Part shown: one piece after another, positions 19,767-41,883 of the stretch | Numbering within the stretch: position 1 is the first letter of the stretch | Layout: each line of letters starts with the position of its first letter | Program-made: the position numbers and the translations under genes | Origin: Marivita sp. | GTDB taxonomy: Bacteria; Pseudomonadota; Alphaproteobacteria; Rhodobacterales; Rhodobacteraceae | Length of the DNA stretch: 64,000 nt | Assembly (NCBI RefSeq): GCF_020055635.1 | Contig: NZ_JAIPUT010000008.1 | Span: 1-64,000, forward strand | Reading direction: 5' to 3' | Notes under the pieces: model-generated | Database searches by the model: none | Told to the model about the DNA's origin: nothing | Seen by the model: only the letters and a program-made list of their open reading frames with translations

Positions 19767-21584
19767 ATGCCATTTGGAACTGCGATCCTGAAACGCAAGA
19801 TATCGCGATCTTTCGAACTCTGGCGCAAGGTGATCGCGTTGCTGCGTTACAGCAGCCGCAGGCTTGGCCTGATCGTTCTGATCGCCACCATATTCGAAAC
19901 GATCTTCACGCTGGCCGGACTCTTTTCCATCAAGTTCGTGGTGGAAAGCGTTGCGACTGCTGAAGATTTTCGCGCCAACGCCACTGAAATCCTGACCGCC
20001 GTCAGCCTGGTTCTGGTGCTGATGCTGGCCGGCCGCATCCTTCAGTCGGTGACGAACTATTACAGGGCGGCGCAGGGATATGTCGTCAGCGATTACGTCA
20101 ACCAGGTCATCCAGGAACGGGCGGTTGCGGCCGATCTGAGTTTTTACGACAGCGATCTTTATTTCGACAGCCTCGAAAGGGCCCGTCAGGCCGGGCCGCA
20201 ACGACCCGCCGCCGTCATCGCCAACGCACTCAATGTCTTTCGCGGCGGCGTGATGCTTCTTGGGATCACCGCGATCCTGTTTGCCGTGGAATGGCGGTTG
20301 CTGCCGGTCAGCCTCGTGGCAGTGGCCCTCATCCTGTATGTTCAGGTGCGCTTCACGCGGGAGCGGTTCAATCTTCAGCGTCAGCTTGTTCCGAAAGAGC
20401 GCCGCGCCTTTTATGCGGATTGGCTCATGACGGCAGGATCCTTCGCCAAGGAAATCCGGCTGTGGGATCTCGGGGATTACCTGCGCAAGGTTTTCCTGGC
20501 GCTTCGTGTCGAGATACGGCAGGACTACATGCAAATCGAAAAGCGCAAGGCCATGTCTGAGGCTCTGGTCGCCGTAGTCGGCACGTTGCTTTTCGTCTTG
20601 GCCGGGGCCTTCATCCTTTACCGCTTTTCCGTCGGAGCGGCGGATCTTGCCGATCTGGTCATGGTGCTTGTCCTGTTGATCCGGGCCGAAGCCGCAGGAC
20701 GGGATCTCGTGTCCAGCCTGTCACGGCTTTATGACGATCAGCTGTTCCTCAATCAGCTGTTTGCGTTTCTCGAATTGAAGCCGGTCATGAAACGGGAAGG
20801 AGCCACAAAATCCGTTCCTGCCGTCACCGAAAAGGGAGTTCGCCTGGAGAATGTGAGCTTCTCTTATCCGGCCACGACGACGCCGGCTCTGGAAGATGTG
20901 ACTTTGGAAATCCGGCCTGGCCAATTCGTGGCCCTCGTTGGCGGCAACGGATCGGGAAAGACGACTTTGATCAAGCTGTTATGCCGACTTTATGATCCAC
21001 AGGAAGGGCGCGTTCTCTTCGACGGGCACGATGCGCGCGAATACGACCCCACCGAGTATCGCCGCCAGTTCAGCGTGATCTTTCAGGACTTCGTGCAATT
21101 CGCCTATTCCGGCCGCGACAATATCCGCCTGGGTGATATCGAAGGCGAAAGCGACGAAGGGCGGTTGCGCGCCGTATCGACGCTGACGGGCGCCCATGAG
21201 GTGTTGACGGCGCTGCCGAACGGATATGACACGATCCTGTCGCGGATGTTCGAGGGCGGGGCCGAACTCAGCGGTGGACAATGGCAAAAGATCGCCTTGT
21301 CCCGTGCGATGTTTCCGCATTCGAAATATATCATCCTCGATGAGCCGACCAGCGCGATCGACCCGAATGCCGAGGCTGAACTTTTCGATGGGTTCCGCGG
21401 CAAGATGGAGGGGCGGGGAGCGCTTGTGATCAGCCATCGTCTTTCGACAATTCGTCAGGCCGATTACACCTATGTGCTCGAAGGCGGTCGGATCGTCGAA
21501 CACGGCACACACGAAATGCTCATTGCGCAGGATGGCCATTATGCCGGCATGTTCGAACGTCAGGGGCGCGGGTATCGGGCATGA
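19767..21584 (+). CDS. ABC exporter of the lasso-peptide locus (McjD-like)
   Basis: 605 aa, half-transporter with a six-helix exporter domain (about residues 25-320) fused to an ATPase domain (350-600). Walker A VGGNGSGKTT is near residue 390, the signature LSGGQWQK near 500 with Trp in place of the usual basic residue as in other lasso exporters, and Walker B YIILDEPTSAID near 520. AAGGA lies eight bases before ATG. It stands 336 bases upstream of the two precursor genes on the same strand. The likely role is export of the mature lasso peptides and self-immunity; other exporter substrates cannot be excluded from sequence. Confidence 0.85.
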   Translation: MPFGTAILKRKISRSFELWRKVIALLRYSSRRLGLIVLIATIFETIFTLAGLFSIKFVVESVATAEDFRANATEILTAVSLVLVLMLAGRILQSVTNYYRAAQGYVVSDYVNQVIQERAVAADLSFYDSDLYFDSLERARQAGPQRPAAVIANALNVFRGGVMLLGITAILFAVEWRLLPVSLVAVALILYVQVRFTRERFNLQRQLVPKERRAFYADWLMTAGSFAKEIRLWDLGDYLRKVFLALRVEIRQDYMQIEKRKAMSEALVAVVGTLLFVLAGAFILYRFSVGAADLADLVMVLVLLIRAEAAGRDLVSSLSRLYDDQLFLNQLFAFLELKPVMKREGATKSVPAVTEKGVRLENVSFSYPATTTPALEDVTLEIRPGQFVALVGGNGSGKTTLIKLLCRLYDPQEGRVLFDGHDAREYDPTEYRRQFSVIFQDFVQFAYSGRDNIRLGDIEGESDEGRLRAVSTLTGAHEVLTALPNGYDTILSRMFEGGAELSGGQWQKIALSRAMFPHSKYIILDEPTSAIDPNAEAELFDGFRGKMEGRGALVISHRLSTIRQADYTYVLEGGRIVEHGTHEMLIAQDGHYAGMFERQGRGYRA

Positions 21585-21920
21585 CAATTGCATCGGCGGG
21601 ACTTGCACGGACCGGACACGCATCAACACCGGACGTTGTGGTGGATCAGTCGGAATTGCCGCAGTCTTCAACTGATTCTCGGACGTTTCGATGGCTTTCG
21701 GTAAAACTACCTCAGATTGCGCGGATTTGGCGTGTTTGCGTTAACAGTAGAAAACCTGCGCCGGGAGTCCGAGGCAATTCGGGTCGATCTGCATGGAAAA
21801 ATGTCAAAAATTGGGCAAAAACGGCTTCGGATGTGGCGTGTGCGCTGGAAAATGTTGTATAGAGAAGTGCGATATTCTAATTTCTGTATGCAATATTGTT
21901 AACATTACTGGGAGACGAAA
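21585..21920. promoter_or_regulatory. Upstream region of the precursor genes
   Basis: Noncoding, turning strongly AT-rich over the last 80 bases (21850-21915), where GATATTCTAATTTCTGTAT and CAATATTG / GTTAAC dyads occur. This is the likely promoter and regulatory region for the precursor genes. The leading part up to about 21700 is GC-richer and carries no recognisable frame. GGGAGA, six bases before the A1 start, is the ribosome binding site. Confidence 0.45.
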
Positions 21921-22061
21921 ATGAACAAAGCACTTTATGAAGCCCCTGTCATCCGTGCGCATGGCAAGGTCGAGAATATCACCAAGGGTCAGGCGACTGG
22001 TTTGAATACCGACGCGGCCTTCTCAACTACAACGCCGCTTGCGGATGTGACATTCTCTTAA
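21921..22061 (+). CDS. Lasso-peptide precursor A1, 46 aa
   Basis: A short gene preceded by GGGAGA. The leader (residues 1-22) fits the lasso leader motif YxxPx(L/I)xxxGxxxxxT exactly: Y6, P9, I11, G15 and T21, with T21 at -2 from the predicted cut after K22. The 24-residue core starts GQATGLNTD and ends ADVTFS. Gly1 and Asp9 give a nine-residue macrolactam ring, which makes a class II lasso peptide. F12 and F23 are the only aromatic residues of the tail. The C-terminal residue is Ser24, the type of residue phosphorylated by lasso kinases such as PadeK. Dedicated B1, B2 and C genes follow. The product sequence is not one I recognise. Confidence 0.9.
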   Translation: MNKALYEAPVIRAHGKVENITKGQATGLNTDAAFSTTTPLADVTFS

Positions 22062-22090
22062 CTTGGGTCATGCGGTTTTTTCGCCGCTCC

Positions 22091-22138
22091 TGAACCCATG
22101 TTAAGCATGTGGGCATGCTCCTGACCGGAAAGGGTTCA
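22091..22138 (+). repeat. Folded spacer between the two precursor genes
   Basis: TGAACCC (22091-22097) pairs with GGGTTCA (22132-22138), enclosing a second hairpin AGCATG-TGGG-CATGCT (22104-22119). No T-run follows, so it is more likely an mRNA-stabilising or processing element than a terminator. It follows the A1 stop by 30 bases. Confidence 0.45.
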
Positions 22139-22225
22139 CATGTCGTCCGGGCTGGAATTGGTCTGGGCATCACTACCTGCGCTTGTTGACGCAAGCATAT
22201 CCAAAACTGTTTAACGGAGTATAGA

Positions 22226-22366
22226 ATGAACAAGTTACCATACGAAGCGCCGATTGTTCGGTCGCACGGCAAAGTGGAAGACATCACCAAGGGCGGCTCG
22301 ACTGGTCTGCGCCTTGACGCGTCTTTCCCGGCCGGCACGCCTTTCGGCGATCTGACACTGTCATGA
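22226..22366 (+). CDS. Lasso-peptide precursor A2, 46 aa
   Basis: Paralogue of A1 with the same length and layout; CGGAG precedes the ATG. The leader carries Y6, P9, V11, G15 and T21; V11 is a conservative change from the usual Leu/Ile. The core after K22 starts GGSTGLRLD and ends GDLTLS, again 24 residues with Gly1, Asp9 and a terminal Ser24. Shared core positions with A1 are T4, G5, L6, D9, A10, F12, P17, D20, T22 and S24. The ring differs at positions 2, 3, 7 and 8 (G, S, R, L against Q, A, N, T), giving this peptide a positive charge in the ring. The pair looks like a duplication followed by divergence of ring and loop residues. Confidence 0.9.
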   Translation: MNKLPYEAPIVRSHGKVEDITKGGSTGLRLDASFPAGTPFGDLTLS

Positions 22367-22370
22367 TCGG

Positions 22371-22464
22371 TATCTGGCCATGTTACGTGGCCAGATATTG
22401 ACCGGGCTATAAGCTCCCGGTCACTAACAGGTATGGTCAATGCCCCTATTTGGCATTGGCCATA
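22371..22464 (+). terminator. Three tandem stem-loops after the precursor genes
   Basis: Three hairpins follow the A2 stop. Hairpin 1 (22371-22397) has a perfect ten-base stem TATCTGGCCA / TGGCCAGATA. Hairpin 2 (22399-22423) has a perfect eight-base stem TGACCGGG / CCCGGTCA. Hairpin 3 (22432-22464) has a 13-base stem with one G-U pair and is followed by TTGTTTTC, a good intrinsic terminator. The array should stop or attenuate most transcripts before the processing genes and keep precursor mRNA in excess. Confidence 0.85.
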
Positions 22465-22529
22465 TTGTTTTCTCGGATGGCAGCCTGGTGTGTCCCTGCT
22501 GATGCAAAGTCTGTCCATCCTCAAGGAAC

Positions 22530-22856
22530 ATGAATTTCAAATATCAAGACGGGCACGGTCCCATGACTTTTTCCGAGACTCGCTACATTGCGCAAGACAA
22601 TATCATTGATTGTGATCTGGGAGGAGAGCGTGCTCTTCTCAATTTGAAATCAAACGATTATTTCACCATGAACGGGACAGCCTCGACGATCTGGCTTTCA
22701 TTGAAAGAGCCGAGATCAATGGATGATCTGATCGACGCCGTGACCGAGAAGTTCGATGTGGCCGCCGACCTGTGCCGTCCGGACGTTCAACGGCTGCTGG
22801 CCGAGATGCTGAAAGCCGGCATCATCGACACTGTCACGGTTGATGCGCAGGTGTGA
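22530..22856 (+). CDS. Lasso RRE protein B1 (PqqD-like)
   Basis: 108 aa. Proteins of this type hold the precursor leader and deliver it to the B2 protease and C synthetase. The segment DCDLGGERALLNLKSNDYFTMNGTASTIWLSL followed by the helical MDDLIDAVTEKFDV and VQRLLAEMLKAGII is the PqqD/RRE winged-helix pattern. The first ATG has AAGGA very close; a second ATG at 22563 (MTFSETRYIAQ) would give a 97-residue protein, closer to the usual length. Its stop overlaps the start of B2. Confidence 0.86.
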   Translation: MNFKYQDGHGPMTFSETRYIAQDNIIDCDLGGERALLNLKSNDYFTMNGTASTIWLSLKEPRSMDDLIDAVTEKFDVAADLCRPDVQRLLAEMLKAGIIDTVTVDAQV

Positions 22857-23287
22857 TGAAGTACCTCCGCTGGTCTGCAATATACACGGTTTGCATTTTC
22901 GTGGTCGTGATCGTTCGCATTGGCCTCTGGGTGACGACCTATCAACGTATTCATGGATGGCTCGTGCGGCCTTGCCCCCATGACCCTCAGCCCGAGCGCG
23001 AACATACCGTGGCGCGGATCGTGCATGCTGTCGAACGCATGGCCCGGCTGATCCCGGACGCGACTTGCTTGACCCAGACAATTTCGGCGCAGGCTGTCTT
23101 GTCATGGAAAGGCATTCCCTCGACCATTTCCATGGGCCTCAGGAAAGGGTCCGAAGATGATTTGCGGGCGCATGCCTGGCTGGTCTGGAACGGACGGATC
23201 GTGCTTGAAGGCGACGAGGGAACCTTGAGCGCATTCACGAAGATGCTCGACCTGCCGACCCCCTTGTCCCCGACCATTCCCAAATGA
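22856..23287 (+). CDS. Lasso leader peptidase B2 (transglutaminase-like)
   Basis: 143 aa cysteine protease that removes the leader. C71 in DATCLTQTISAQAVLSWKG and H106 in LRAHAWLVWNG match the Cys-His pair of McjB-type proteases; E118 or D120 may complete the triad. The N-terminus carries a hydrophobic stretch (residues 6-26), so it could be membrane-associated, close to the exporter. The ATG at 22856 overlaps the B1 stop; a GTG one codon earlier is also possible. Its end overlaps the C gene by four bases. Confidence 0.87.
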   Translation: MKYLRWSAIYTVCIFVVVIVRIGLWVTTYQRIHGWLVRPCPHDPQPEREHTVARIVHAVERMARLIPDATCLTQTISAQAVLSWKGIPSTISMGLRKGSEDDLRAHAWLVWNGRIVLEGDEGTLSAFTKMLDLPTPLSPTIPK

Positions 23288-25194
23288 CGCATGCCTTTGC
23301 CTTTCGTGCGCCGCTCCTGACGGGCAGTTCCGGATCGGTCGGGATCAAAGATCGCCTGATGCGACTTGGGGCGGCTGGGTGGCATGTGTCCGAACCCGCG
23401 CCGCAGACGCATGTGGCGCAACAGGGCATGGCCGGATTCGTGGAAAACGATCGGCTGATCCTTGCCGGAATGGTGTTCCTGGATGACCGCGCGGCGATGG
23501 CAGGTAAGCTCGGACGCGAAATTGACCCCGATGAGACCGATCTGGACTTGGCGTTGGCGCTGCGGATTGCCCGCGGCCCCGCATTTGCAACGGATCTGCC
23601 GGGCACCTTCTCGATCGTGGTGCTTGACCGGGTGACCGGAACCCTCGAGGGCTTCCGCGACCATTTCGGGGTCTTCCCTTTCTATTATGCCACTGCAGAA
23701 GACAGCTTCACCTGTGGTTCTGATATCCGATCCGTCCTGCACCTGTCCGACATGCCGTTGAGCGCCAATCCCCTGCGCCTCGCGGATTTCATCGAAGGTA
23801 GCGAGCTGGACACGAGGATCACCGCTTATGACGGGCTGCAACGCTTGCCCACGGCGCATATGCTGACGCTGGAGGGCGGAACGGTCGACACAAAGCGGTA
23901 TTGGACCCTCAAGGCCGACGATGACCCGACCATCAAGGATGACGTGGCCGCGTCACGGCTTCGCAGCACGCTGGCATCCGCCGTGGATGCCCGACTGGAC
24001 GCGCCGGGTCAGGTCGGTGCCATGCTGAGCGGCGGGCTTGATTCCTCGTCGCTTGCCGGATTGGCCGCAAAGGCCGCAACCGACCGGAACCTTGCGCCGG
24101 TCAAGACCGTGTCGCTGGTCTACGGGGCGGACAAGGCATATGACGAGACCCGTTTCATCACCTCGGCCAACGACACTTTTGGAACCGACCCGAAACTCAT
24201 CCAGATTACGGCGCCACCGCGACTGCGCGACATCGGACCGCTGATCGAAGAACAGATGGAGCTGTTTCTGGGATTTGGACTGCCGAAGAGCAGGTGCATC
24301 TATCCCGAGGCGAGCGCGTTTGGATTGGGAGCCTTGCTCGACGGGCATGGCGGCGACGAGGTCATTTCCCATGGATATGGGCGGTTGGTCGAACTGGCGA
24401 TCGAAAGACGCTGGGTCAAACTGTTTCGTGAATTGCGGGGGGCGGCAGAGGTTCACGGAACCGACTTCTGGTCCTCCTACCTTTCGTATATCCTGCGGTA
24501 TGGCGGAATGCGAACGCGTCATCCGGTGCAGCGGGTCCTGCGCAAGGTCGCGCGAAAACTGCACAAGGGCTCTCGGGCATCGGGGACTGCCATTCGACCC
24601 GGGCAGCTTCTCTCGGTTTCATTGGCCAAGACCGTTGAAGCGACTTATCGCTACAACACCAAACCGGAATCCCTTGATCTGAGGCGTCTTCGCAAGGCTG
24701 AAAAACTCGCGCACCACGAGTCCCTGACAAACCCGTTGATGCAGCATGGCTTTGAAGTGCTGCACCGAAGCGCGGTTTCTGCCGGTATTCTTCCGCTTTA
24801 CCCATTTTTTGATCGCCGCGTTGTCGAGGCGTGCCTTGCGATGCCGTCGGATATGAAACTGCGCGGAGGCCGGACCCGTTGGATCCTGCGTGAAGCGATG
24901 CGGGGACTTTTGCCCGAAGACATCCGCACCCGACCGGACAAGGCAGAATTCGGCGACGAGTTTGCCGAATCCGTGCGGGAGTATTTCCGTTCCGAGGGTC
25001 TTGAGAGCTTGAACACCCTTGGCCCGTTTGTCGATCTGGACGAGGCAAGGGCGCTTTGGGAACAGGTCTCGACGAAACAGAAACCAGAAAACATAGATGC
25101 GTTGCGCGCGCTTTGGCGCCTGGTCATTCTTGCGAAATGGCTTGACGCTCTGGACGTATGGCAAGACCAGCAAAGGCGCGGCACCCTGATATGA
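23284..25194 (+). CDS. Lasso macrolactam synthetase C (asparagine synthetase-like)
   Basis: 636 aa. It activates the Asp9 side chain with ATP and closes the ring on Gly1. The N-terminal part is a degenerate glutaminase domain: the protein begins MTHAFAF, with no Cys2 nucleophile, as in other lasso C proteins. The C-terminal ATP-PPi domain shows MLSGGLDSSSLAG near residue 250, LLDGHGGDEVISHG near 355, and YPFFDRRVVEACLAMP. It overlaps B2 by ATGA and the kinase gene likewise, so B1-B2-C-kinase form one tight operon. Confidence 0.92.
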   Translation: MTHAFAFRAPLLTGSSGSVGIKDRLMRLGAAGWHVSEPAPQTHVAQQGMAGFVENDRLILAGMVFLDDRAAMAGKLGREIDPDETDLDLALALRIARGPAFATDLPGTFSIVVLDRVTGTLEGFRDHFGVFPFYYATAEDSFTCGSDIRSVLHLSDMPLSANPLRLADFIEGSELDTRITAYDGLQRLPTAHMLTLEGGTVDTKRYWTLKADDDPTIKDDVAASRLRSTLASAVDARLDAPGQVGAMLSGGLDSSSLAGLAAKAATDRNLAPVKTVSLVYGADKAYDETRFITSANDTFGTDPKLIQITAPPRLRDIGPLIEEQMELFLGFGLPKSRCIYPEASAFGLGALLDGHGGDEVISHGYGRLVELAIERRWVKLFRELRGAAEVHGTDFWSSYLSYILRYGGMRTRHPVQRVLRKVARKLHKGSRASGTAIRPGQLLSVSLAKTVEATYRYNTKPESLDLRRLRKAEKLAHHESLTNPLMQHGFEVLHRSAVSAGILPLYPFFDRRVVEACLAMPSDMKLRGGRTRWILREAMRGLLPEDIRTRPDKAEFGDEFAESVREYFRSEGLESLNTLGPFVDLDEARALWEQVSTKQKPENIDALRALWRLVILAKWLDALDVWQDQQRRGTLI

Positions 25195-26138
25195 CAGTCC
25201 CGTATCACTATTCCGTCTTCGGTCTGACCCTGGCGTCCGATTTCGATTTCGAGGTTCTTGAAAAAGCCGATCCCCCCGTGGCCGGGCCGGATGTCACCGT
25301 CAAGCGGGTCATCGGCATGACCCGTCCGACCCATCCGGCGGATCCCTTTTTCGACATCACGCCCGATCGGCAATATCTGCATTGGCAAGCGGTCGCCGCG
25401 TTCTCGATCGAAAGCCCCGGCCTGGTTCTCGTCGAACCGCATGACGGCATTTCGGATCACCTCGTGTCGCAGGCGTTCCTGGGCTTGGTGATTTCGCTGG
25501 TGCTGGAACGACGCGGCGTGCTTTGTCTTCACGCCAGTGCCGTAAGCGTCAATGGACGTGCCGCCTTGTTTCTCGGTGACAAGGGCGCTGGTAAATCCAC
25601 GACATCCTGCGCGGTTCAGTCGCGTGGGCATTCGCCGCTGACCGATGATCTGGTTGCCGTTGCGGACGCGGCAGGGGCGGTTTCAGCCCCTTTCGTACAG
25701 CCCGGGTTCTCGAGCATGAAGCTTTGGCCAGACTCGATCGCCGCGCTCGCACTGCCCGAGGACGCGGATGACCGCCGCGTGCATCCTTCGGTCTCAAAGA
25801 TTCAAAAGCGCATGCCGATGGAGATCGCCAATGACCCCGCGCCGATGGGTGCCATTTTCCTGCTGCGACGGAGTTCGGAAACCCAGGCTCCAAAAGTTTT
25901 TCGACTCCCGCCGCACCTCGCCTTGCAGGCTGTGCTGCGGTTTACCTTCATGGCACGCTACGGAGAGTCCAGGCTGGGTCCCGACCACCTGGTCTTGCAT
26001 ATGAAGCGCTGTGGCGGGGTCGTGGCGAACGTGCCTGTCTTCGATTTACACATACCAGCGAACCTCGACCTGATCTCGGACGTGGCCAAGACCATCGAGG
26101 AGTGCATGGACCAGACCCGGTCACACGCGCGCATGTAA
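25191..26138 (+). CDS. HPr-kinase-like protein of the lasso locus
   Basis: 315 aa. The start at 25191 overlaps the synthetase stop (ATGA); an earlier in-frame ATG lies inside that gene. The HprK-type core is LCLHASAVSVNGRAALFLGDKGAGKSTT: HASAV at 114-118 and the P-loop at 129-137, followed by LTDDLVAV. Related kinases in lasso loci (PadeK and similar) phosphorylate the C-terminal Ser of the precursor. Both precursors here end in Ser, so phosphorylation is the leading hypothesis. There is no HPr gene beside it, which argues against a sugar-phosphotransferase role. Confidence 0.83.
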   Translation: MTVPYHYSVFGLTLASDFDFEVLEKADPPVAGPDVTVKRVIGMTRPTHPADPFFDITPDRQYLHWQAVAAFSIESPGLVLVEPHDGISDHLVSQAFLGLVISLVLERRGVLCLHASAVSVNGRAALFLGDKGAGKSTTSCAVQSRGHSPLTDDLVAVADAAGAVSAPFVQPGFSSMKLWPDSIAALALPEDADDRRVHPSVSKIQKRMPMEIANDPAPMGAIFLLRRSSETQAPKVFRLPPHLALQAVLRFTFMARYGESRLGPDHLVLHMKRCGGVVANVPVFDLHIPANLDLISDVAKTIEECMDQTRSHARM

Positions 26139-26211: not shown

Positions 26212-26922
26212 TCACTTTCCGGTGCGGTTCAGAACAGCTCCGACTGTGGCCAAAATGACTTTCAGGTCCAGCTTCATGGAAATGTTTTGGATGTACTCCA
26301 CGTCAAGCAAGACCCTCTGTCGGTAGGTAATATCGTTTCGTCCTGAAATCTGCCAAAGACCCGTCACACCCGGACGGACCGAAAAGTAATCGCGTTTGTT
26401 GCAGCCGTATTTCCGAACTTCGGCCCGCACGATCGGGCGCGGCCCGACAAGGCTCATGTCACCTTTGAGAACATTCCAAAGCTGCGGTAGTTCATCCAGA
26501 CTGGTCGCTCGGAGAAATGCACCGAAGCGGGTGATCCGGGGGTCGTTTTCGAGTTTGTGGTCACGTTCCCATTCTGCGGCCGCTTCCGGATTGGCATCCA
26601 GATGAGCGCGCAGCTTTTTCTCGGCATCGGTAACCATGGATCGGATTTTCCAGCACCTGAATGTCTTGCCGTTCTTTCCGATCCGCTTGTGTCCGAAGAA
26701 TATCGGCCCGCGATCACCAGAGACCACCATGACAACCGCGATCAGCAGAACAATGACCAATGTTGGTGGAACGGCGAGAGCGGCAAGGGTGAAGTCAAGA
26801 ATTCTCTTTCCCGTTTCGCGGTAGGAAATGCGCCCGGCTTGAATGTGCTGGGCCCCGAGAGAAGAGATCGCTTCGGAATCTGGTTCCTCAATCAAAGCAT
26901 AATGTTTCAATCTACTCTCCAA
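26212..26922 (-). CDS. Initiating sugar transferase (polyprenyl-P glycosylphosphotransferase)
   Basis: 236 aa. It transfers a sugar-1-phosphate to undecaprenyl phosphate to begin an exopolysaccharide repeat. One membrane helix is at about residues 42-66. The catalytic domain has the family signatures [62 protein letters not shown] and [13 protein letters not shown]. It is the short ExoY-type form without the N-terminal CoA-binding-like domain. It is divergent from the Wzc/ExoP gene across a 1.1-kb gap. Gal-1-P or Glc-1-P transfer cannot be told apart. Confidence 0.92.
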
Positions 26923-28006: not shown

Positions 28007-30175
28007 ATGAACGAAATGAATGATATGAACGAGTACAAGCCGCGGGAAGTTCAAACGCGCTATCAGACGGATGCCGACGATACGCCCATCGGCTTCGTCG
28101 CATTGTGGCGGCTCTTGTGGCGGAACAAGCTCAGAATTCTGATGCCGGCCATTCTTCTTTCGCTGCTGGCGGCCTATGTCGTCACGCGGAGCAGCGATAC
28201 CTATACCGCAGAAGCACAGATCATCCTGACCCGGGGCAACCTCGAAATCATCGAAGTGGACGGGGTCAACAGCAGCGAACTCACCTCCGGTGCCATTGCA
28301 AATGCCATGACCATCCTGAATTCGCGCAGTCTGGCGGTTCAGGTCGTCGATCGGCTTGACCTTGTCAACGATCCCGAAATCAACCCACTGCTCAGCGAAA
28401 CGTTCGAGACCGGTACCAGCTGGCGCGACTGGCTCTCGTCCTGGACCCAGGCGTCCGACGAAGAGGATGTCCCCGTCGAGGTCATCGAACAGGCCGACGA
28501 GGCAACACTGGCCCGGCAATTCGCTCTGGAGTGGTTGGGCGAGTCGACCGCGATCGTGCAGTTGCCCGGCACCAATGTGGTGATCATTCGCGCCACAACG
28601 TCGGATCCGATCAAATCTGCCGCGGTTGCCAATGCATACGCGGAAAATTATCTGGAATATCAATTGAGTTTCAGCTTGCGCCAGGTCCAGCGCGCCACGG
28701 ATGCGCTTGCCGACCGGGTCGGAGAACTGCGCCTTCGGGTCCAGGAGGACCAGCGCGCGCTTCAGGACTTCGGTTCCAGTTCGCCGACGATCAGTCTCGA
28801 TTCCCTTCCGACCCTGGTCTCCCAGGCGAACAACATTCGCGTTCGCCTTCAGGATGCCCAGGAGAGGCTTTCGGATCTCAATGGCGCGCTGGCCAAGATC
28901 GACGGCCTTGAAAACGATCCCTCGCGGGACGGCCGTGCAGAATTCAATGCGGACCCGCTTCTGACCGAGATGGAGACCACCGTTGCCGGAGGCGCGATTG
29001 CCGCAGCAGAACTGAGGTCGCGTCTGCCCGACATTCGCGCCAGAGCAATCGAGCAACGCGACCAGGCAGTGCGGCTTGAAGCCGCGCTCAGGGAAAGCCT
29101 GCAAAGCCTCGACGAGCGGATCGTCGAAAGCAACGATTTCGAAATCGGGTATCGCGAACTCGAGGTCGAACTCGAGACCACCTCGCAGGTCTACGAGACC
29201 TCGCTTGCCCGCCTGAAGGAACTGATCATCCAGAGCGGAGTCAGGGACGCAGGTGCGCAAATCCTTGCACCGGCCGAAGTCCCGCTGCGCTATGACATCC
29301 AGGGCCGGCGCCGCCTGGTCGTGATCGCCTTCATCCTGGGCCTGTTGCTGGGCTCGGCCTATGTGCTGGCGCGGGAATCGACCAACGACCGTGTTCGCAA
29401 GACGTCTGACCTCGAAGACGCCAGCGGCGCTTACGCTGTCGTCGACATGCCGAAACTGCGGCGGGGGTTCTGGCGTCGCGACCTGCAGCGCAACGTCAGC
29501 CTGACAGAAGGCAGGTCACTGTTCTTCGAAGGGGTCCGCACGCTTAGACAATCCTTGATCAAGAGCGGCCCACCCAGACATGGCGGTCGCGTGATCGGCG
29601 TGTTCTCGGGGCTGCCGCGTGAAGGAAAAAGTCTGGTTTCGGTCGCCCTGGCGCGTTCCTTCGCGATGATGGGCCATTCGGTTTTGTTGATCGATACCGA
29701 TTTGCGCAGCAGCAGCCTGCATCGCACCCTGACCCGCGGCACCAGGGGCTTTGGCCTTCAGGACGGACTCGGACCGGAACCCGTCGAATTGTCCCAGCTT
29801 GTGGTGAGCCAGCCCACGTTGCGGTTTGACGTGATCTTCGCCGGCAAAAGCACCAGGAGCCCGGCCGATCTTCTGGCCTCGGAGAACTTCGCAAAACTGA
29901 TTTCCGAAGCAAGGGAACAGTATGATTTCGTCATACTCGATACTCCACCGATCCTTGTTGTGCCGGATGCAAGCCAGATCGCCCAACACTCGGACCAACA
30001 GGTTCTGGTCGCCGAGTATGATCGCAGCCCCATGATCGCCGTGCGCGACGCGGCATCGATCCTGCGAAATTGGGGCTCTGACGAGGTGATCGCCGTTCTC
30101 TACAGTGCGCCTCAGGTCTTCGGCCAACAATATGGGATCGATCGCAGCGATTTCTCGAGGTACCTGAAAAGTTGA
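28007..30175 (+). CDS. Exopolysaccharide co-polymerase / BY-kinase-like protein (Wzc/ExoP)
   Basis: 722 aa. It controls chain length and export of exopolysaccharide. A Wzz domain occupies the N-terminal half, with membrane helices near residues 42-62 and 435-455 and a long coiled-coil periplasmic region (about 220-410). The cytoplasmic ATPase has a Walker A GLPREGKS near 530, Walker A-prime VLLIDTDLRSS near 560 and Walker B YDFVILDTPPIL near 640. The C-terminal tail has only scattered Tyr rather than a clear Tyr cluster, so autophosphorylation may be limited. Several Met codons (MNEMNDMNE) leave the start uncertain by a few residues. It is followed by the ExoF-like gene. Confidence 0.9.
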   Translation: MNEMNDMNEYKPREVQTRYQTDADDTPIGFVALWRLLWRNKLRILMPAILLSLLAAYVVTRSSDTYTAEAQIILTRGNLEIIEVDGVNSSELTSGAIANAMTILNSRSLAVQVVDRLDLVNDPEINPLLSETFETGTSWRDWLSSWTQASDEEDVPVEVIEQADEATLARQFALEWLGESTAIVQLPGTNVVIIRATTSDPIKSAAVANAYAENYLEYQLSFSLRQVQRATDALADRVGELRLRVQEDQRALQDFGSSSPTISLDSLPTLVSQANNIRVRLQDAQERLSDLNGALAKIDGLENDPSRDGRAEFNADPLLTEMETTVAGGAIAAAELRSRLPDIRARAIEQRDQAVRLEAALRESLQSLDERIVESNDFEIGYRELEVELETTSQVYETSLARLKELIIQSGVRDAGAQILAPAEVPLRYDIQGRRRLVVIAFILGLLLGSAYVLARESTNDRVRKTSDLEDASGAYAVVDMPKLRRGFWRRDLQRNVSLTEGRSLFFEGVRTLRQSLIKSGPPRHGGRVIGVFSGLPREGKSLVSVALARSFAMMGHSVLLIDTDLRSSSLHRTLTRGTRGFGLQDGLGPEPVELSQLVVSQPTLRFDVIFAGKSTRSPADLLASENFAKLISEAREQYDFVILDTPPILVVPDASQIAQHSDQQVLVAEYDRSPMIAVRDAASILRNWGSDEVIAVLYSAPQVFGQQYGIDRSDFSRYLKS

Positions 30176-30303: not shown

Positions 30304-31536
30304 ATGACAATTAGAGCGGCAACGTCCTGGTTCCGTACCGGCTTGTTGGCATTGGTTTTTTTGACGGCTGGTCTGACAACCGCGTGGGCGCAGGAATACC
30401 GGCTGGCGCCCGGCGATGTGATCCGTACACAGATCACCGGGTTGAACGACAGTTTCTATCTTGCGCAACTGGACATGACGGGCACCATCCGTCTGCCTTA
30501 CCTCGGGACATACAAGGCGCAGGGCAAGACACTCGACGAATTGCTCAACGAGATTTCGATCGTGACCGCAGGTCGCCAGATCGAAGTGAGCACCAACGGC
30601 ATCAATCAGGTTATCGTCCTGAACCAAAGCGCGATTTTCCTGGATATCGAACAGTACAGGCCGATTACGGTCATCGGTGCTGTCGCCTCACCAGGCCAGG
30701 TGGCGTTCGAACCGGGCCTGACCGTGCGGTCGGCAATCGGGATTTCCGGCGGTTTTCTTGTGCCCGGCCTGACGCAGAACCAAAGCAATCTTCCGAACCT
30801 GCGCATCCGTATCGAAGAGGTGCGCCAGAACGAAGCCTGGCTGGCGGCGGATCTCTGGCGTTTGAGCGCCTTGCTGTCAGAAGCCGACAGGGACAATCCG
30901 CCCGAAGAATATGCCTCCTTGATCCGGAACCAACTCACAGAGGCCGATATCGAGTCCCTGCGAGCCCGCATCGCGGGAGAGTTCGACCAGCTTGCGCGTG
31001 ACCACGAAGACCTCAAGGCGCGCATCGAATTGTCGGGCGCGCAGGTCGAGCTGCTCAAGGTGGTCCTCGATCAATACAAAACGGCGTCCGACACCGAGGA
31101 AGAGCGGCTCGCCCGTGTCGCGTCCTTGTCGGATCGCGGATTGACCACGGTCGATGTGCTTGAACGTGCACGATCTTCGGCTCTGAACATGTCGACGCGC
31201 CTGTTGACAACACAGGCGGAACTCGCAGAGGCCGAACGTGAATTGCAGGCGTTGCAACGTCAACAGCTTGAACTGGATGCCGCGTTTCGTCAGGGGGTTC
31301 TCGAAGAAAAGGCACGTGTCGACCAGCAATTTGCCGAAGCCCGCGTGCGCTCGAAGGCCATTCGCGGCGAACTGGCGTTGGGCGCTCTGGTCGAGGATGC
31401 GGATGACACGGTGACGCCCGCATATCGCATTGTGCTACACCGTCGCAGCAACGGCGCGGAAACCAGCGCTCTCAGTGAACTGGGCAAGACTCTGGAGCCC
31501 GGCGACGTGGTGGAAGTCCTGCTTGGCGACACCTGA
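30304..31536 (+). CDS. Polysaccharide export protein (ExoF/Wza-like)
   Basis: 410 aa with a signal peptide (WFRTGLLALVFLTAGLTTAWA) and no lipobox Cys. The polysaccharide-export (Poly_export) domain begins at EYRLAPGDVIRTQI and covers about residues 30-110; a SLBB-like segment follows (PITVIGAVASPGQVAFEPGLTV). Residues 215-350 are coiled-coil. The combination of export domain and coiled coil is typical of ExoF-type periplasmic proteins of alphaproteobacteria rather than an outer-membrane Wza lipoprotein. It lies 128 bases downstream of the Wzc-like gene and converges on the Wzx gene. Confidence 0.88.
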   Translation: MTIRAATSWFRTGLLALVFLTAGLTTAWAQEYRLAPGDVIRTQITGLNDSFYLAQLDMTGTIRLPYLGTYKAQGKTLDELLNEISIVTAGRQIEVSTNGINQVIVLNQSAIFLDIEQYRPITVIGAVASPGQVAFEPGLTVRSAIGISGGFLVPGLTQNQSNLPNLRIRIEEVRQNEAWLAADLWRLSALLSEADRDNPPEEYASLIRNQLTEADIESLRARIAGEFDQLARDHEDLKARIELSGAQVELLKVVLDQYKTASDTEEERLARVASLSDRGLTTVDVLERARSSALNMSTRLLTTQAELAEAERELQALQRQQLELDAAFRQGVLEEKARVDQQFAEARVRSKAIRGELALGALVEDADDTVTPAYRIVLHRRSNGAETSALSELGKTLEPGDVVEVLLGDT

Positions 31537-32950: not shown

Positions 32951-34293
32951 CAATGTTCGCTCCAGTGCCCGATATGGTTTGCTTGGTTCGGTCTGTTGAC
33001 GATGAGGCCCGTGGGGCGTGACCGTGTGGGCAGCACCTGTTTGCGTGGCCACAACCGACCCTCCGGGAGAGCCCTGTCGCTGGCATAGACTCCGAATGCC
33101 AACCCGCACACGACATACATGTGCCGCCAGTGGATCGCCCCGACGACCATCATCAGCACCAGGAGGCCCATGAGAACGGACAGGATCAGGGCGTATTTCG
33201 TCCATCCTGGCCGCTGGTCCATCACCTTGGTCGCGCATCGAAACAGCGATGACCCGTAGATGAGGATCAGACCGATACACGCGAAAATGCCATTGTGCAT
33301 GGCAAAGGCGATGAACGTGTTATGCGGCAGGTACCCATAGACGAAGCGCGCCTGCACCGGTCCGATACCAAGCGGGTGCCGCAGGATCTGTACGGTCGCA
33401 TCCGCGACGAAAGCAAACCTGGTGGTGTCGTAGCTTTGCAGGCTCAGCCGATCCGCGAAAAACGTGTCGGCGAGACCTGCCACGATCCGGTCTAGAAACA
33501 GCAGAACGACAAGACAGATGGCAATCGCAAGATACAGGATGATCGAAAACACCGCGCGGGATGTCGAACGCAAGGCAAGCAGGGCGCCTGCCATGACCAT
33601 CAGGGAGAACAGCGCATGAACCCATGCACCGCGCGAAAAGGTCGACACCAACGAAATGAGCAACATCCCCAGCACGCCAAGGGCAAGAAAACGGTACCGT
33701 TTGGATTCGACCAGGATCCAGGTCACGAACAATATACTGGGCACCAGGAAGGGGCCAAAGACATTGGGATCCTTGAAGGTCGCCTTGACCCGATTGCGAA
33801 CGCCCTCGCCGCGATAGAAAATGTCACTGTTCGGGATCAGGTCCAGAAGGGCGACAACCGTGACGATGCTCGCCAGAACGCCCCCGATGACCAATGCCAG
33901 CAGGATTGCCCGAAAGGCCTCGTCGCCTCTGGTTCGGGCGTAGTAGGCGGTCATCACGAAAAGGCCGATCATGTAGAATTCGATCAGCACGGCGCGATAG
34001 GCACCGATCGGATTGTACTGGACGAAAAACAGGCTGATCACGGAGAAGATCAGGTAAAGAAGCACCCCTGTCGTCGCCGCGCCACTCAGGAAACTGGTTG
34101 TCTTGGGCCGGGAAAAGCCGAACACGACCAGGCCGATCATGAAAATCAGGTCGCACAGCGCGGGTTCGATCACGACAAGAAAGCTGGTCGTGATGGACAA
34201 CAGATAAAGACGCCATGCCAATTGCTGCATCCCGTCAGAGCGGCTTTGCGCGCTGCTGAAGATACCTGCAGAGCTCACGGCCGTCTGCGCCAA
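32950..34293 (-). CDS. O-antigen ligase / Wzy-type polymerase
   Basis: 447 aa membrane protein with about ten to twelve helices and a large periplasmic loop in the second half. The Wzy_C pattern is visible: NVFGPFLVPSILFVTWIL, LLISLVSTFSRGAWVHAL and the loop end RHPLGIGPVQARFVYGYLPHNTFIAFAMHNGI, where Arg and His residues of the family lie. It overlaps the sulfotransferase gene by 19 bases and the flippase gene by one base. It should polymerise the repeat units in the periplasm. Confidence 0.85.
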   Translation of the reverse strand: MAQTAVSSAGIFSSAQSRSDGMQQLAWRLYLLSITTSFLVVIEPALCDLIFMIGLVVFGFSRPKTTSFLSGAATTGVLLYLIFSVISLFFVQYNPIGAYRAVLIEFYMIGLFVMTAYYARTRGDEAFRAILLALVIGGVLASIVTVVALLDLIPNSDIFYRGEGVRNRVKATFKDPNVFGPFLVPSILFVTWILVESKRYRFLALGVLGMLLISLVSTFSRGAWVHALFSLMVMAGALLALRSTSRAVFSIILYLAIAICLVVLLFLDRIVAGLADTFFADRLSLQSYDTTRFAFVADATVQILRHPLGIGPVQARFVYGYLPHNTFIAFAMHNGIFACIGLILIYGSSLFRCATKVMDQRPGWTKYALILSVLMGLLVLMMVVGAIHWRHMYVVCGLAFGVYASDRALPEGRLWPRKQVLPTRSRPTGLIVNRPNQANHIGHWSEH

Positions 34294-35114
34294 TCCGACA
34301 GATCCCGATCAAGCAGCGTCTCGAGCCGCGCGATTTCGCCGGCATGCCGATCCGCGAGGATCGTCCAGTCTTCCGGGGTGTCGTAAAGCTTGGGCACGCG
34401 GCTTGGGCTGAACAGCAACCGGTCCATGAGCGGGTTGTTCTTCAGCTTGCTGAGCGCACCGCTCATTCCGGCGGCACGCATCGTGATCGCGCCCCTTTTC
34501 AACAATCCGTTCAGCCTGGGATTCCGGGCCGCCCTGGCAATGTTCTTGGCGTTGCTGTCGTCCGTGGATATCTGGCGCCGGCTCACGCCAAGGAAATCGT
34601 GCAGCATGTCCGCCGCCTTCTGCGGCTCCGAGCGGATGTCGTCGAACCACAGGATCAGCGTGTTTTCCCGTCCGAAAAGGCGCCATGACCGTTCGATCGC
34701 GTCCGAATAGGCACTGCATTTCGTGAGCAGGTGATGCGCGAACATCAACTCGTCCTTGAGCGCGCCCGTCGATTGGCCCGTCCGCAACAGGTGCTGGTAG
34801 GCCGACCAATCCCGATCGACCGGATTGCGCAGCGAAAAGAACACCTTGGCGTCCGGAATATGCTGGGCGAGCCGGTCAGCCGGTTCAGGCAGGAACAGGT
34901 AATCCGTGGTCAGGTCGACGCGGGCTACATGCTGCGCTTGCGCCTTCGAATACAGACGCTCGTACCACTCGATACCGCGGTCATAATAGTCGGTGAAAAA
35001 CTGGACATATTTGCCCTCGGGCACAAAGACTTCGGGATGCCTGTCGAGCAGGTCATATATCCAGGACGATCCCGCCTTGGGAGGGCCACCGTAAATATAA
35101 TTGGGCAAGGTCAT
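34275..35114 (-). CDS. PAPS-dependent sulfotransferase
   Basis: 279 aa. The 5'-phosphosulfate loop reads YGGPPKAGSSWIYDLLDRHPEVF at residues 8-30 and the 3'-phosphate motif VFFSLRNPVDRDWSAYQHLL near 90-110, which fits the sulfotransferase family using PAPS. The soluble form has no membrane segment. It begins the block with polymerase and flippase on the same strand, so it probably sulfates the polysaccharide repeat, giving an anionic polymer as in many marine EPS. No PAPS synthesis gene is in the window. Confidence 0.87.
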   Translation of the reverse strand: MTLPNYIYGGPPKAGSSWIYDLLDRHPEVFVPEGKYVQFFTDYYDRGIEWYERLYSKAQAQHVARVDLTTDYLFLPEPADRLAQHIPDAKVFFSLRNPVDRDWSAYQHLLRTGQSTGALKDELMFAHHLLTKCSAYSDAIERSWRLFGRENTLILWFDDIRSEPQKAADMLHDFLGVSRRQISTDDSNAKNIARAARNPRLNGLLKRGAITMRAAGMSGALSKLKNNPLMDRLLFSPSRVPKLYDTPEDWTILADRHAGEIARLETLLDRDLSDWRRRP

Positions 35115-35509
35115 GGGTCATCGTTCCCCTGCAAATGGCTAGGCAATAAATTAGTCAACACAATGTCGGTCTCTTCATACTATGGAACTCGCGAACAATC
35201 ACAGCGCATGGTCGATGGGGTGGTCTCGTTCTCCTTTCAACGGGCGTTTGTGTCGCCCCACATTGTCGTCAGCAAAAAAGCGCAAGTGGGATGTGTCTCA
35301 ATTCCGGCAGACTGTTCGTTCAAAATCGGTCCAAATCCGGACCCTGTTGAAATCAGTAACTTATCCACAAGGAAAATTCAAATCCGAACATCGTTTCTCG
35401 AAGTGTTATGACCGGATATCGCATGAAATTCAGGCAGTCATTGTCGGCTCCGTGAAAACGCCGATCCATGTGGCACAACGGCCATGCCGTGACGGGCGCG
35501 CAACATATG
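35115..35509. other. Intergenic region upstream of the sulfotransferase gene
   Basis: No convincing gene. The open frames on both strands are short and unlike protein. It should hold the promoter for the sulfotransferase-polymerase-flippase unit and the end of the methyltransferase transcript. No strong terminator hairpin was seen. Confidence 0.4.
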
Positions 35510-36388
35510 TCATCGTTTCCCGCGCAGCCGCGAAACCGTTCTCAGAAACAGTCTCGGAAGCCAGGCGATTTCGTCGAATTTCCGTTTGAGTTCGGCATGT
35601 TCCGCTTCGAGGTTCTCGAAACACGTCCCGAGATGCTGATGCGCATCGTGCAGTTCTTGCCAGGCTTCGCCAAGGCGTTTGATTTCCGCCGCATCCTTGG
35701 AATGTTTCGCAAGAAGTTCGGGATGTGCGAGATCCAGGATCGGACGTAACTTCTGTTTCAAAGGGTCTGCAAATGTCGGCTTTTGTGCAAGACATGCGCG
35801 ATCCACGAAAAGCAGGATGTTCTGGCGATACCAGGGCTCGACTTGGGGAATATCCCAAATCCGCCCGCGCAAGACGTCAAGGCAGGTGTATCCTTTCGCC
35901 TCGAAATGACGACACCAATAGCTTGGGAGGGCCTCGTTGACGTGCCCCTCGCCACCCTGGCCGGGCAGGGCGGCGGAAAAGAGAATGACCGGGCTCAGCG
36001 CGGTGAGATTTCCGACAAGCGTTTCCGCGGCGCTTTCGGGCAGGTGTTCGGCGGCTTCGAGACAGAGCGCCAGATCGAAGCGGCGGCCAAGGCCCAGCGG
36101 TTGCCCGATATCCGCGGCAACGAAGTTTTCGACCGGGATCCGCAGCGTTTCTTGAGCAACCCACGGCCCATCAATCCCGAGGACATCGTCTGTGCCCCAG
36201 TCACTCGCCGCCTTTGCCCAGGCACCTGACCCGCATCCGACATCGACGAGGCTCTTGGGGTCAAGCGCATCGAGAACCATCGGCAGAACGATTTCCGCGG
36301 AACGTCGGCTGCCTTCTTCGAGCGCGGCGTGATACTCGGTATCGTAGACGCCCGTCTGCGGCACATCGGGAGGATCAGCGGGGCTCAT
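35510..36388 (-). CDS. SAM-dependent methyltransferase with C-terminal coiled coil
   Basis: 292 aa. Class I methyltransferase fold: SLVDVGCGSGAWAKAASDWG is motif I (about residues 46-65), VLGIDGPWV follows, and FDLALCLEAAEHLPE is the motif IV region. The C-terminal 80 residues (DAAEIKRLGEAWQELHDAHQHL onward) form a helical or coiled-coil tail ending in a basic cluster (LRGKR), possibly a membrane or partner contact. It overlaps the GT2 gene by 14 bases. A sugar O-methylation or a chain-terminating methylation of the EPS is plausible. Confidence 0.82.
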   Translation of the reverse strand: MSPADPPDVPQTGVYDTEYHAALEEGSRRSAEIVLPMVLDALDPKSLVDVGCGSGAWAKAASDWGTDDVLGIDGPWVAQETLRIPVENFVAADIGQPLGLGRRFDLALCLEAAEHLPESAAETLVGNLTALSPVILFSAALPGQGGEGHVNEALPSYWCRHFEAKGYTCLDVLRGRIWDIPQVEPWYRQNILLFVDRACLAQKPTFADPLKQKLRPILDLAHPELLAKHSKDAAEIKRLGEAWQELHDAHQHLGTCFENLEAEHAELKRKFDEIAWLPRLFLRTVSRLRGKR

Positions 36389-38947: not shown

Positions 38948-38951
38948 AAAC

Positions 38952-40745: not shown

Positions 40746-40896
40746 CCCTGTCAATTTCGCGCCGGGTGGTACAGCGTCGATAGATGCAGGATCGGTCACA
40801 TCACGCTTGGGTTTCCGGCCAAGGCGAACCGAGCGGCGGTCGTTTCTCAGGGCTGAAAACGCATCCAACCAGACCCCCAGTCGGCCCGCCGCCAGA

Positions 40897-41883
40897 TCAC
40901 GCGTTCCGTACCTTGTCGACCTGCGCCATGTTCTCACGGAACCACTCAAGTGTCATGCGGACGCCATCTTCGTACCGAACCTCACACTCCCATCCGGGAA
41001 GTATCTTTCGAGCGAGAGTAAGGTCGGGACAACGATTGGTCGGATCCTGTGGCGGCGAGGGTTCATGAACGATCTTGCACCCCCCCATAATATCGGAAAT
41101 GTATTTTGCGACGTCGAGCACCGGAATTTCCCGGTCATTGCCGATATTCAAGGGACCCGCATAGTCGATCGGATCGCGCCAGAAATACCGTGCGAGGCCT
41201 TCGACGATGTCGTCCACATATCCCCAGCTGCGTGTCTGCAGTCCGTCACCGTACACGGTCAGCGGTTCGCCGTTCAGGGCTTGGGAAATGAAATTGGACA
41301 CCGCGCGGCCGTCATCGACACGGGTTCTGGGGCCGTAGACGTTGAAAAGACGCGTGACGCGAAGATCCAGACCGTTCACCCGACGCTCTTCGAAAAGCAG
41401 CGATTCGGTTACACGCTTCGACTCGTCGTAAGATGACCGTGGACCCGTGCAATCCACGGAACCGCGATAGCTCTCGGGCTGCGGCGAGACTTTTGGATCT
41501 CCGTAGACTTCCGATGTCGAGAAAAAGCAGAACCGGCCTCCTTTGGACAGCAGGTCAAGAAGACGCAAGGCGCCACCCAAATTCGCCGATATCGTACGTC
41601 GGGGTGCTGCCATATACCAGGGAGGGGACGCAGGCGAAGCCAAGTGGTATACTTCGTCAAACCGTTCCGACGTCTGGAATGTCTCGATGTCGGACAGTTC
41701 AAACTTGAATCGCGGGTCAGAGATATGTGCGATATTGTCGGCCAAGCCGGTCCAAAGGTTGTCGACACAGACAAGAAGCGAAACGTCACGCCGTTCAAGC
41801 AGCCGATCGCAAAGTTGGGAGCCTATGAAACCGGCTCCTCCTGCCACAAGAATGCGCTTTCCAATTTTATCGTGTAACACCAT
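40897..41883 (-). CDS. NAD-dependent epimerase/decarboxylase, UDP-xylose synthase-like
   Basis: 328 aa short-chain dehydrogenase of the UDP-glucuronate decarboxylase branch, probably giving UDP-xylose. ILVAGGAGFIGSQLC carries the GxxGxxG at residues 15-21; the catalytic triad is in FFSTSEVYGDP and SSYDESKRVTE (Tyr-x3-Lys). The segments VTRLFNVYGPRTRVDDGRAVSNF and YGDGLQTRSWGYVDDIVEGL match the UXS family. MVLHDKIGKR is chosen as the start; the in-frame extension to 42000 looks unlike protein. It heads the ABC-GT2-GT2-methyltransferase unit. A dTDP-glucose dehydratase-like role is the less likely alternative. Confidence 0.84.
   Translation of the reverse strand: MVLHDKIGKRILVAGGAGFIGSQLCDRLLERRDVSLLVCVDNLWTGLADNIAHISDPRFKFELSDIETFQTSERFDEVYHLASPASPPWYMAAPRRTISANLGGALRLLDLLSKGGRFCFFSTSEVYGDPKVSPQPESYRGSVDCTGPRSSYDESKRVTESLLFEERRVNGLDLRVTRLFNVYGPRTRVDDGRAVSNFISQALNGEPLTVYGDGLQTRSWGYVDDIVEGLARYFWRDPIDYAGPLNIGNDREIPVLDVAKYISDIMGGCKIVHEPSPPQDPTNRCPDLTLARKILPGWECEVRYEDGVRMTLEWFRENMAQVDKVRNA

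What the first reader, a model, noticed from the sequence alone, without database searches (positions are those of the whole stretch)
19767..26138. Two-precursor class II lasso-peptide locus of an apparently new type
Exporter, two precursors, RRE, protease, synthetase and kinase are all present in order. Both leaders fit the motif YxxPx(L/I)xxxGxxxxxT (V11 in A2), both have Thr at -2, Gly at core position 1 and Asp at 9, and both cores are exactly 24 residues. Ring and loop residues differ between the two, so one enzyme set would make two distinct peptides. I do not recognise either core. The usual alphaproteobacterial companions, an isopeptidase and a TonB-dependent receptor, are absent from the whole window, and an exporter is present instead, which suggests secretion for antagonism or signalling rather than re-uptake.
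Basis: partly seen in the sequence, partly recalled or inferred. Interest (0 to 1): 0.92.

Follow-up and report, generated by a model that had tools for sequence, protein, structure and literature searches.

The report
Phospho-lasso peptide locus among polysaccharide genes
A bacterium, apparently a relative of the roseobacters, carries a complete gene set predicted to make two small knotted, phosphate-tagged peptides, a known kind of natural product, but the genes sit beside a locus for making the cell's sugary coat, and so do most of their closest relatives, hinting at a role in surface life.

Summary
In detail: ABC exporter, two 46-aa precursors, PqqD-type RRE (B1), B2 protease, lasso cyclase (C) and an HPr-kinase-like protein (K) lie in order at 19767-26138; both cores are 24 aa with Gly1 and Asp9 after a Thr(-2) leader. 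'Apparently new type' is only partly right: K and a C-terminal Ser on both cores make it a paeninodin-type phospho-lasso locus; one such kinase (SyanK) is known from another alphaproteobacterium. The cores belong to a family found in 9 of 394 sampled genomes of the bacterial family (this one included), and again at a second locus of this genome. By Pfam markers, 8 of 10 clade loci lie within 10 kb of such genes (0.3 expected; the two misses are on contigs under 7 kb), against 5 of 18 other lasso loci in the same 26 genomes. The link was reported in 2026 for Bacilli; my searches showed no report for Gram-negatives. A close relative (L003) lacks the cyclase and has a core without a ring acid. 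Most likely: two C-terminally phosphorylated, exported lasso peptides whose role is tied to polysaccharide or biofilm (inferred).

The parts
19767..21584 (+). ABC exporter (MsbA-like permease-ATPase, 605 aa)
   Evidence: Pfam ABC_tran; MsbA-type NCBIfam hits below cut-off; 67% identical exporter in the same place in L004
21921..22061 (+). Precursor A1, core GQATGLNTDAAFSTTTPLADVTFS
   Evidence: lasso_leader_L3 over cut-off; family alignment; GGGAG before the ATG
22058..22104 (+). RNA hairpin after A1
   Evidence: 81-nt stretch folds with z -2.9, 0 of 200 shuffles as stable
22226..22366 (+). Precursor A2, core GGSTGLRLDASFPAGTPFGDLTLS
   Evidence: lasso_leader_L3 over cut-off; family alignment; GGAG before the ATG
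22370..22422 (+). Two RNA hairpins after A2, before B1
   Evidence: 86-nt stretch folds with z -3.5, 1 of 200 shuffles as stable
22530..22856 (+). B1, PqqD-like RiPP recognition element
   Evidence: Pfam PqqD 5e-17; nearest solved chain TbiB1, 5v1u, E 3e-6
22853..23287 (+). B2, leader peptidase (transglutaminase-like Cys protease)
   Evidence: NF033537 72.2 bits, cut-off 33; Cys of CLTQ in 13 of 13 and His of HAW in 12 of 13 clade B2 proteins
23284..25194 (+). C, asparagine-synthetase-like lasso cyclase
   Evidence: Asn_synthase 1e-45; lasso cyclase model NF033535 324.5 bits, below its cut-off of 525
25158..26138 (+). K, HPr-kinase-like precursor kinase
   Evidence: Hpr_kinase_C, below gathering score; HPr kinase chains 1ko7 and 1jb1, E 1.2e-5 and 1.8e-5; His, Lys and Asp-Asp of lasso kinases in 11 of 11 clade proteins
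26212..26922 (-). WbaP-type sugar transferase, start of the adjoining exopolysaccharide locus
   Evidence: Pfam Bac_transf 2e-64
28007..30175 (+). Wzz/GNVR tyrosine autokinase (Wzc-like)
   Evidence: Pfam Wzz, AAA_31; GNVR below its cut-off
30304..31536 (+). Wza-like polysaccharide export protein
   Evidence: Pfam Poly_export 4.5e-10
34275..42000 (-). Rest of the polysaccharide locus: sulfotransferase, methyltransferase, two family-2 glycosyltransferases, ABC transporter, epimerase
   Evidence: Pfam

Best explanation
The locus makes two class II lasso peptides of the paeninodin (phospho-lasso) kind. B1 binds the YxxPx(I/V)xxxG leader and presents A1 or A2. K phosphorylates the C-terminal Ser24 of the linear precursor. 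B2 cuts one residue after Thr(-2), C joins Gly1 to the side chain of Asp9 with the tail threaded, and the ABC protein exports the product. Shown here: gene content, motifs, homology, and conservation of Gly5, Asp9, Thr16, Thr22 and (nearly) Ser24. Inferred: every chemical step and its order. The locus adjoins an exopolysaccharide locus and I infer that the peptides act with, or under the same control as, that polysaccharide (matrix, attachment); this last step is the least certain and the confidence below does not cover it (about 0.35).
For: Domains and curated models; RRE and kinase relatives among solved structures. Precursor family: 15 distinct 24-aa cores with Gly5, Asp9, Thr16 and Thr22 in 15 of 15, Ser24 in 14 of 15, Gly1 in 12 of 15 (cores); the 26-aa core of L042 and the odd core of L003 also end in Ser. 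Kinase His, Lys and Asp-Asp in 11 of 11, the residues reported as important in tested lasso kinases (PMC10368454 section 23; PMC9266682 passages). The kinases form one group of 13 rows in a 46-row tree, support 87/95, in 88% of bootstrap trees. Polysaccharide link: Pfam markers within 10 kb at 8 of 10 clade loci, 0.30 expected; window-query tblastn: 13 of 15 clade loci against 6 of 57 others, p 3e-8.
Against: No expression or mass data. BsfK, a lasso-precursor kinase, phosphorylates Ser3, not the C-terminus (PMC10368454); Ser or Thr stands at core position 3 in 12 of 15 cores, A2 (Ser3) among them, though A1 has Ala3. One Sulfitobacter core ends in Pro. K is below Pfam's gathering score, and B1 and C are below the cut-offs of the lasso models they hit. 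Clade members share ancestry, so 13 of 15 are not 13 independent events, and linkage may be co-inheritance or hitch-hiking in islands. 5 of 18 other lasso loci in the same genomes also lie near such genes, 0.53 expected, so the link is not exclusive; clade against others is only p 0.011 by that count. With the sugar transferase alone the clade count is 5 of 10 (0.16 expected). The AlphaFold model of K had mean pLDDT 49 and was not used.
Confidence: 0.8

Rival explanations
1. Same biosynthesis, but the peptides are ordinary exported antagonists (bacteriocin-like) against neighbours; the polysaccharide genes are neighbours because both ride in exchangeable surface-polysaccharide islands and plasmids.
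For: An exporter is in the locus; two clade members lie on plasmids, one with transposase genes around it; the cores of A1 and A2 differ at 12 of 24 positions, as could be expected for changing targets.
Against: Conserved core positions run over the whole length, which suits a conserved partner better than fast arms-race change; the linkage is kept in loci whose B2, C and K are only about 30-40% identical to the window's. Neither argument is decisive.
Confidence: 0.4
2. The kinase modifies Ser/Thr at core position 3 (as BsfK and LppK do), not the C-terminal Ser.
For: BsfK and LppK target Ser3 (PMC10368454; PMC13381572 passages); position 3 is Ser/Thr in 12 of 15 cores.
Against: A1 has Ala3 and so would be unmodified there; Ser24 is more conserved (14 of 15).
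Confidence: 0.15
3. The locus is silent or decayed and makes nothing.
For: No expression data.
Against: Frames intact, motifs kept, ribosome sites and overlapping genes present.
Confidence: 0.05

Closest known systems
Paeninodin-type phospho-lasso peptides (PadeK, ThcoK, PsmK; and SyanK of Sphingobium yanoikuyae)
   Same: HPrK-like kinase with a His-Lys-Asp-Asp motif, C-terminal Ser on the core, B1, B2 and C (for paeninodin); class II (PMC9266682 passages). That paeninodin loci also hold an exporter is recalled.
   Different: A Rhodobacterales clade with a 24-aa core family of its own; two precursors in one locus; no nucleotidyltransferase among the window proteins scanned. The SyanA and paeninodin sequences and the SyanK locus were not available to compare.
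Paeninodin-like lasso and LPP loci in capsular polysaccharide loci of Bacilli (Popov et al. 2026, PMC13381572)
   Same: Kinase-type lasso loci beside polysaccharide genes; cyclase-less phosphopeptide relatives (passages)
   Different: Reported for Bacilli; the words Proteobacteria, Pseudomonadota, Rhodobacter, Alphaproteobacteria and Gram-negative do not occur in its main text. The cyclase-less L003 locus keeps a B2 protease; a SipW-type peptidase was not looked for in it.
BsfA/BsfK of Bradymonas (PMC10368454)
   Same: A, B1, B2, C, K and exporter
   Different: Ile(-2), ring to Asp8, phosphate on Ser3, core ends in Asp (abstract and sections 3, 22 and 23)
Isopeptidase/TonB-receptor lasso loci of alphaproteobacteria (sphingocin, astexin type)
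   Same: Lasso precursor, protease, cyclase
   Different: No isopeptidase or receptor found here; kinase and exporter instead (PMC11006600 passages)

Membership tests
Lasso peptide locus | Leader peptidase of the lasso B2 family | tested here: met
   NF033537 72.2 bits, cut-off 33
Lasso peptide locus | Asparagine-synthetase-like cyclase | tested here: met
   Asn_synthase 1e-45; best NCBIfam model is a lasso cyclase, though below its cut-off (324.5 vs 525)
Lasso peptide locus | Precursor with YxxPxL-type leader, Thr(-2), ring acid at core 7-9 | tested here: met
   the L position is Ile in A1 and Val in A2
Lasso peptide locus | Threaded lariat with Gly1-Asp9 isopeptide bond | not testable with these tools
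   needs MS/NMR
Class II | No disulfide (no Cys in core) | tested here: met
   no Cys in either core
Paeninodin-type (phospho-lasso) | HPrK-like kinase gene with His-Lys-Asp-Asp | tested here: met
   (below gathering score)
Paeninodin-type (phospho-lasso) | C-terminal Ser on the core | tested here: met
   both cores; 14 of 15 24-aa cores of the clade
Paeninodin-type (phospho-lasso) | Phosphate on that Ser | not testable with these tools
   needs MS
Isopeptidase-type alphaproteobacterial lasso locus | Isopeptidase and TonB receptor nearby | tested here: not met
   neither among 49 window proteins scanned with Pfam (not every ORF); TonB receptors only on other contigs

The most novel reading that the evidence does not exclude
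A distinct clade of phospho-lasso peptides in Rhodobacterales is a dedicated part of exopolysaccharide systems: the peptides, carrying a C-terminal phosphate, work on, in or with the polysaccharide (regulating its export, anchoring to it, or accepting a sugar on the phosphate). The same link in Bacilli would then be a general, cross-phylum function of phospho-lasso peptides, and cyclase-less relatives such as L003 make linear phosphopeptides for the same end.
Probability: 0.35. Interest if true: 0.75.

Novelty: new member of a known kind. Interest (0 to 1): 0.5.

Why it matters
The biological role of paeninodin-type peptides is stated as unknown (PMC13381572 passages). A Gram-negative clade tied to exopolysaccharide loci, parallel to the 2026 report for Bacilli, turns that into a testable question in roseobacter relatives. 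The locus also gives a natural two-substrate test of one enzyme set, and L003 a natural cyclase-less comparison.

Tried and rejected
Considered and rejected: 'new type' on the strength of the cores alone (the core family recurs); antagonism inferred from missing companions (weak, see rivals); a wider spread of the core family (in 385 genomes of the class, this genome and one weak hit with a stop inside). A structure of K was predicted from 4 sequences but was too poor to use (mean pLDDT 49), so no fold search was run. A lone precursor in another genome (L120), with the same kind of leader but a Gly/Trp-rich core, was looked for in 13 genomes and found full-length only in its own. Profiles for polysaccharide genes were trained partly on clade loci, which favours the clade (13 of 15 against 7 of 57); I therefore rest the count on window-only queries and on Pfam models. 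Rows dropped before the counts: L084 (same contig as L089) and L081 (reached through the kinase, not B2); L006 was never in the set (it appears to be the same contig as L053); L064 and L065, weak B2 hits below cut-off, are in. The 10-versus-18 count leaves out G200 and G382 (those two weak hits), the loci outside the family, and L003-L005 and the two plasmid loci. Its expected numbers ignore contig ends and use rounded genome sizes. The third residue of the B2 catalytic triad was not resolved.

Literature: searches, open PubMed Central set only. No paper held both 'lasso peptide' and 'DLTFS'. Six hold 'lasso peptide' and 'Rhodobacteraceae'; I saw passages of one (PMC9728324: an antiSMASH prediction, no core given in them) and the other five as listing only. 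For 'lasso peptide' with 'exopolysaccharide' 71 papers exist and 25 were listed, and 15 of 55 were listed; apart from PMC13381572 and PMC7533575 (passages), PMC10368454 (sections) and one find in PMC13352647, these were seen as listings, so a report elsewhere is possible. PMC4919450, on paeninodin, was not held; the SyanK paper was not tried.
Full report
WHAT IS THERE. The window holds, all on the + strand, an ABC exporter (19767-21584), two 46-residue precursors (21921-22061; 22226-22366), a PqqD-like RRE, B1 (22530-22856), a B2 protease (22853-23287), an asparagine-synthetase-like cyclase, C (23284-25194), and an HPr-kinase-like protein, K (25158-26138). The last four genes overlap by 4, 4 and 37 bases. 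Both precursors have a purine-rich ribosome site, and stable hairpins follow each (z -2.9 and -3.5), which could keep the short precursor message in excess of the enzyme message (inference). Both pass NCBI's lasso leader model and B2 passes the lasso B2 model; B1 and C hit lasso models below their cut-offs. The cores are GQATGLNTDAAFSTTTPLADVTFS and GGSTGLRLDASFPAGTPFGDLTLS: Gly1, Asp9, no Cys, 24 residues, C-terminal Ser; 12 of 24 positions are identical between them.

RELATIVES. The same genome (G000) has a second lasso locus on another contig, with core GASAGSELDNDFPTGTDFGDLTFS. Of 394 genomes of the family, 27 have a B2 match and 9, this one included, have a precursor of this core family (the profile came from 13 precursors, most of them from these same genomes, so the high scores are partly by construction). 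Of 385 genomes of the class, 2 match: this genome, and one weak hit with a stop inside. Of 17 genomes of the genus, 2 have a B2 match, and the locus of the other one (G002) is not of this family (kinase 145 bits, no precursor of the family). Named relatives: an uncultured Roseobacter (L004) and Rhodobacteraceae bacteria (L003, L005), and plasmid loci of Sulfitobacter indolifex and Paracoccus sp. MC1862. From I took 15 distinct 24-residue cores (the window's two, the second own locus and twelve others): Gly5, Asp9, Thr16 and Thr22 in 15 of 15, Phe/Tyr12 in 15, Ser24 in 14, Gly1 in 12 (Gln, Thr and Ala once each). Two further clade precursors have other cores: L042 (26 residues) and L003 (17), both ending in Ser. 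A1 is no closer to A2 (28 of 46 residues) than to the precursor of L004 (29 of 46), so the pair is not a recent duplication.

ENZYMES. K carries the His, P-loop Lys and Asp-Asp tested in other lasso kinases (PMC10368454 section 23), in 11 of 11 clade kinases, and aligns to HPr kinase chains. B2 keeps its Cys in 13 of 13 and its His in 12 of 13 (the miss, L063, is a short contig of a 73%-complete genome whose B2 frame runs into C). B1 resembles TbiB1. In a tree of 46 kinases the clade's 13 rows sit on one side of one branch (87/95, below the tool's star; 88% of bootstrap trees). No other locus scores above 196 bits with the clade's kinase profile against 300-467 for the clade (the profile was built from clade members).

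MECHANISM. By analogy with paeninodin, whose kinase acts on the C-terminal Ser of the linear precursor (PMC9266682 passages), I propose: B1 binds the leader; K phosphorylates Ser24; B2 cuts; C closes the Gly1-Asp9 ring round the tail; the ABC protein exports. Gene content and conservation are shown; the chemistry is inferred. The alternative that K acts on position 3, as BsfK and LppK do, is open for A2 but not for A1 (Ala3).

THE SURROUNDINGS. Directly after K lies a WbaP-type sugar transferase, then a Wzc-like protein, a Wza-like protein, a sulfotransferase, a methyltransferase, two glycosyltransferases, an ABC transporter and an epimerase: an exopolysaccharide locus. I asked whether this is chance. 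With window genes only as queries, a sugar transferase, Wzc or Wza is found at 13 of 15 clade loci and 6 of 57 other lasso loci (Fisher p 3e-8; the two clade misses, L057 and L063, are on contigs of 6.3 and 6.8 kb; 55 of the 57 others are 9 kb or longer). With Pfam models over 26 whole genomes, 8 of 10 clade loci lie within 10 kb of a marker (0.30 expected, P about 2e-11), and 5 of 18 other lasso loci (0.53 expected, P about 1e-4); clade against others, Fisher p 0.011. With the sugar transferase alone it is 5 of 10 (0.16 expected). Two of the three sugar transferases of this genome lie within 9 kb of its two lasso B2 genes. The polysaccharide genes stand in different places and orientations around the lasso genes: upstream or downstream, same or opposite strand, which speaks against one frozen arrangement, although several loci share a convergent Wzc after the exporter. 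The loci are related, so these P values overstate independence.

PRIOR WORK. A 2026 paper (PMC13381572; passages) reports that paeninodin-like lasso loci and cyclase-less 'linear polyphosphorylated peptide' loci often lie in capsular polysaccharide loci of Bacilli, with role unknown and biofilm suggested. Its main text does not contain the words Proteobacteria, Pseudomonadota, Rhodobacter, Alphaproteobacteria or Gram-negative. A rumen survey notes glycosyltransferases near Firmicutes lasso loci (PMC7533575 passages). I saw no report for Rhodobacterales in the searches (capped listings, with the passages named). So the link is known in one phylum and, as far as these searches go, new in another.

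A CYCLASE-LESS RELATIVE. L003, whose B2 is the closest by identity of the four loci found (67%), has precursor, B1, B2 and K but no match to C or to the exporter in its 12.4 kb; the B2-to-K gap is about 130 bases, and with all clade C and exporter proteins as queries the best E is 0.15 for C and 0.036 for the exporter, over 43 and 17 residues outside the operon. No C homologue was found in its genome (one genome, no positive control in that search). Its core, FYWSWTKIAPWCDPSYS, has no Asp or Glu at 7-9 but ends in Ser. Loss of the cyclase and of the ring acid together suggest a linear phosphopeptide, a Gram-negative counterpart of the Bacilli LPPs but with B2 as peptidase (inference from one genome).

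VERDICT.

Noticed in passing
L003:5427-7526: Lasso-like locus with A, B1, B2 and K but no cyclase; core FYWSWTKIAPWCDPSYS lacks a ring acid and ends in Ser.
   Followed up: partly
L120:8996-9172: Lone precursor about 65 kb from the lasso locus of genome G067: nearly the same leader, but core GRGHGGFGGGWGWGGGRPHRPHDPCDYTFS with no acid at 7-9; may be processed in trans.
   Followed up: partly
L079:5090-7555: Sulfitobacter indolifex plasmid locus has a precursor whose core starts with Thr, and a divergent second precursor upstream whose core starts with Ala and ends in Pro; neither is in the (incomplete) gene table of the record.
   Followed up: no
L005:5370-5510: Precursor core starting with Gln (QSTGGQTLDGAFDAGTPLNQLTTS), where most of the family have Gly.
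   Followed up: no
G000:C7 around 37600-41400 (L037:7600-11434): Second lasso locus of the same genome, also near polysaccharide genes.
   Followed up: yes
L081:4091-7464: Tistrella mobilis plasmid: asparagine synthase, HPr-kinase-like and PqqD genes in a row, then a small ORF, a sigma factor, FecR and a TonB receptor; no B2 annotated there.
   Followed up: no
window 42487-44904: Right-handed beta-helix protein beyond the epimerase of the polysaccharide locus; relatives also lie near the lasso loci L004 and L005.
   Followed up: no
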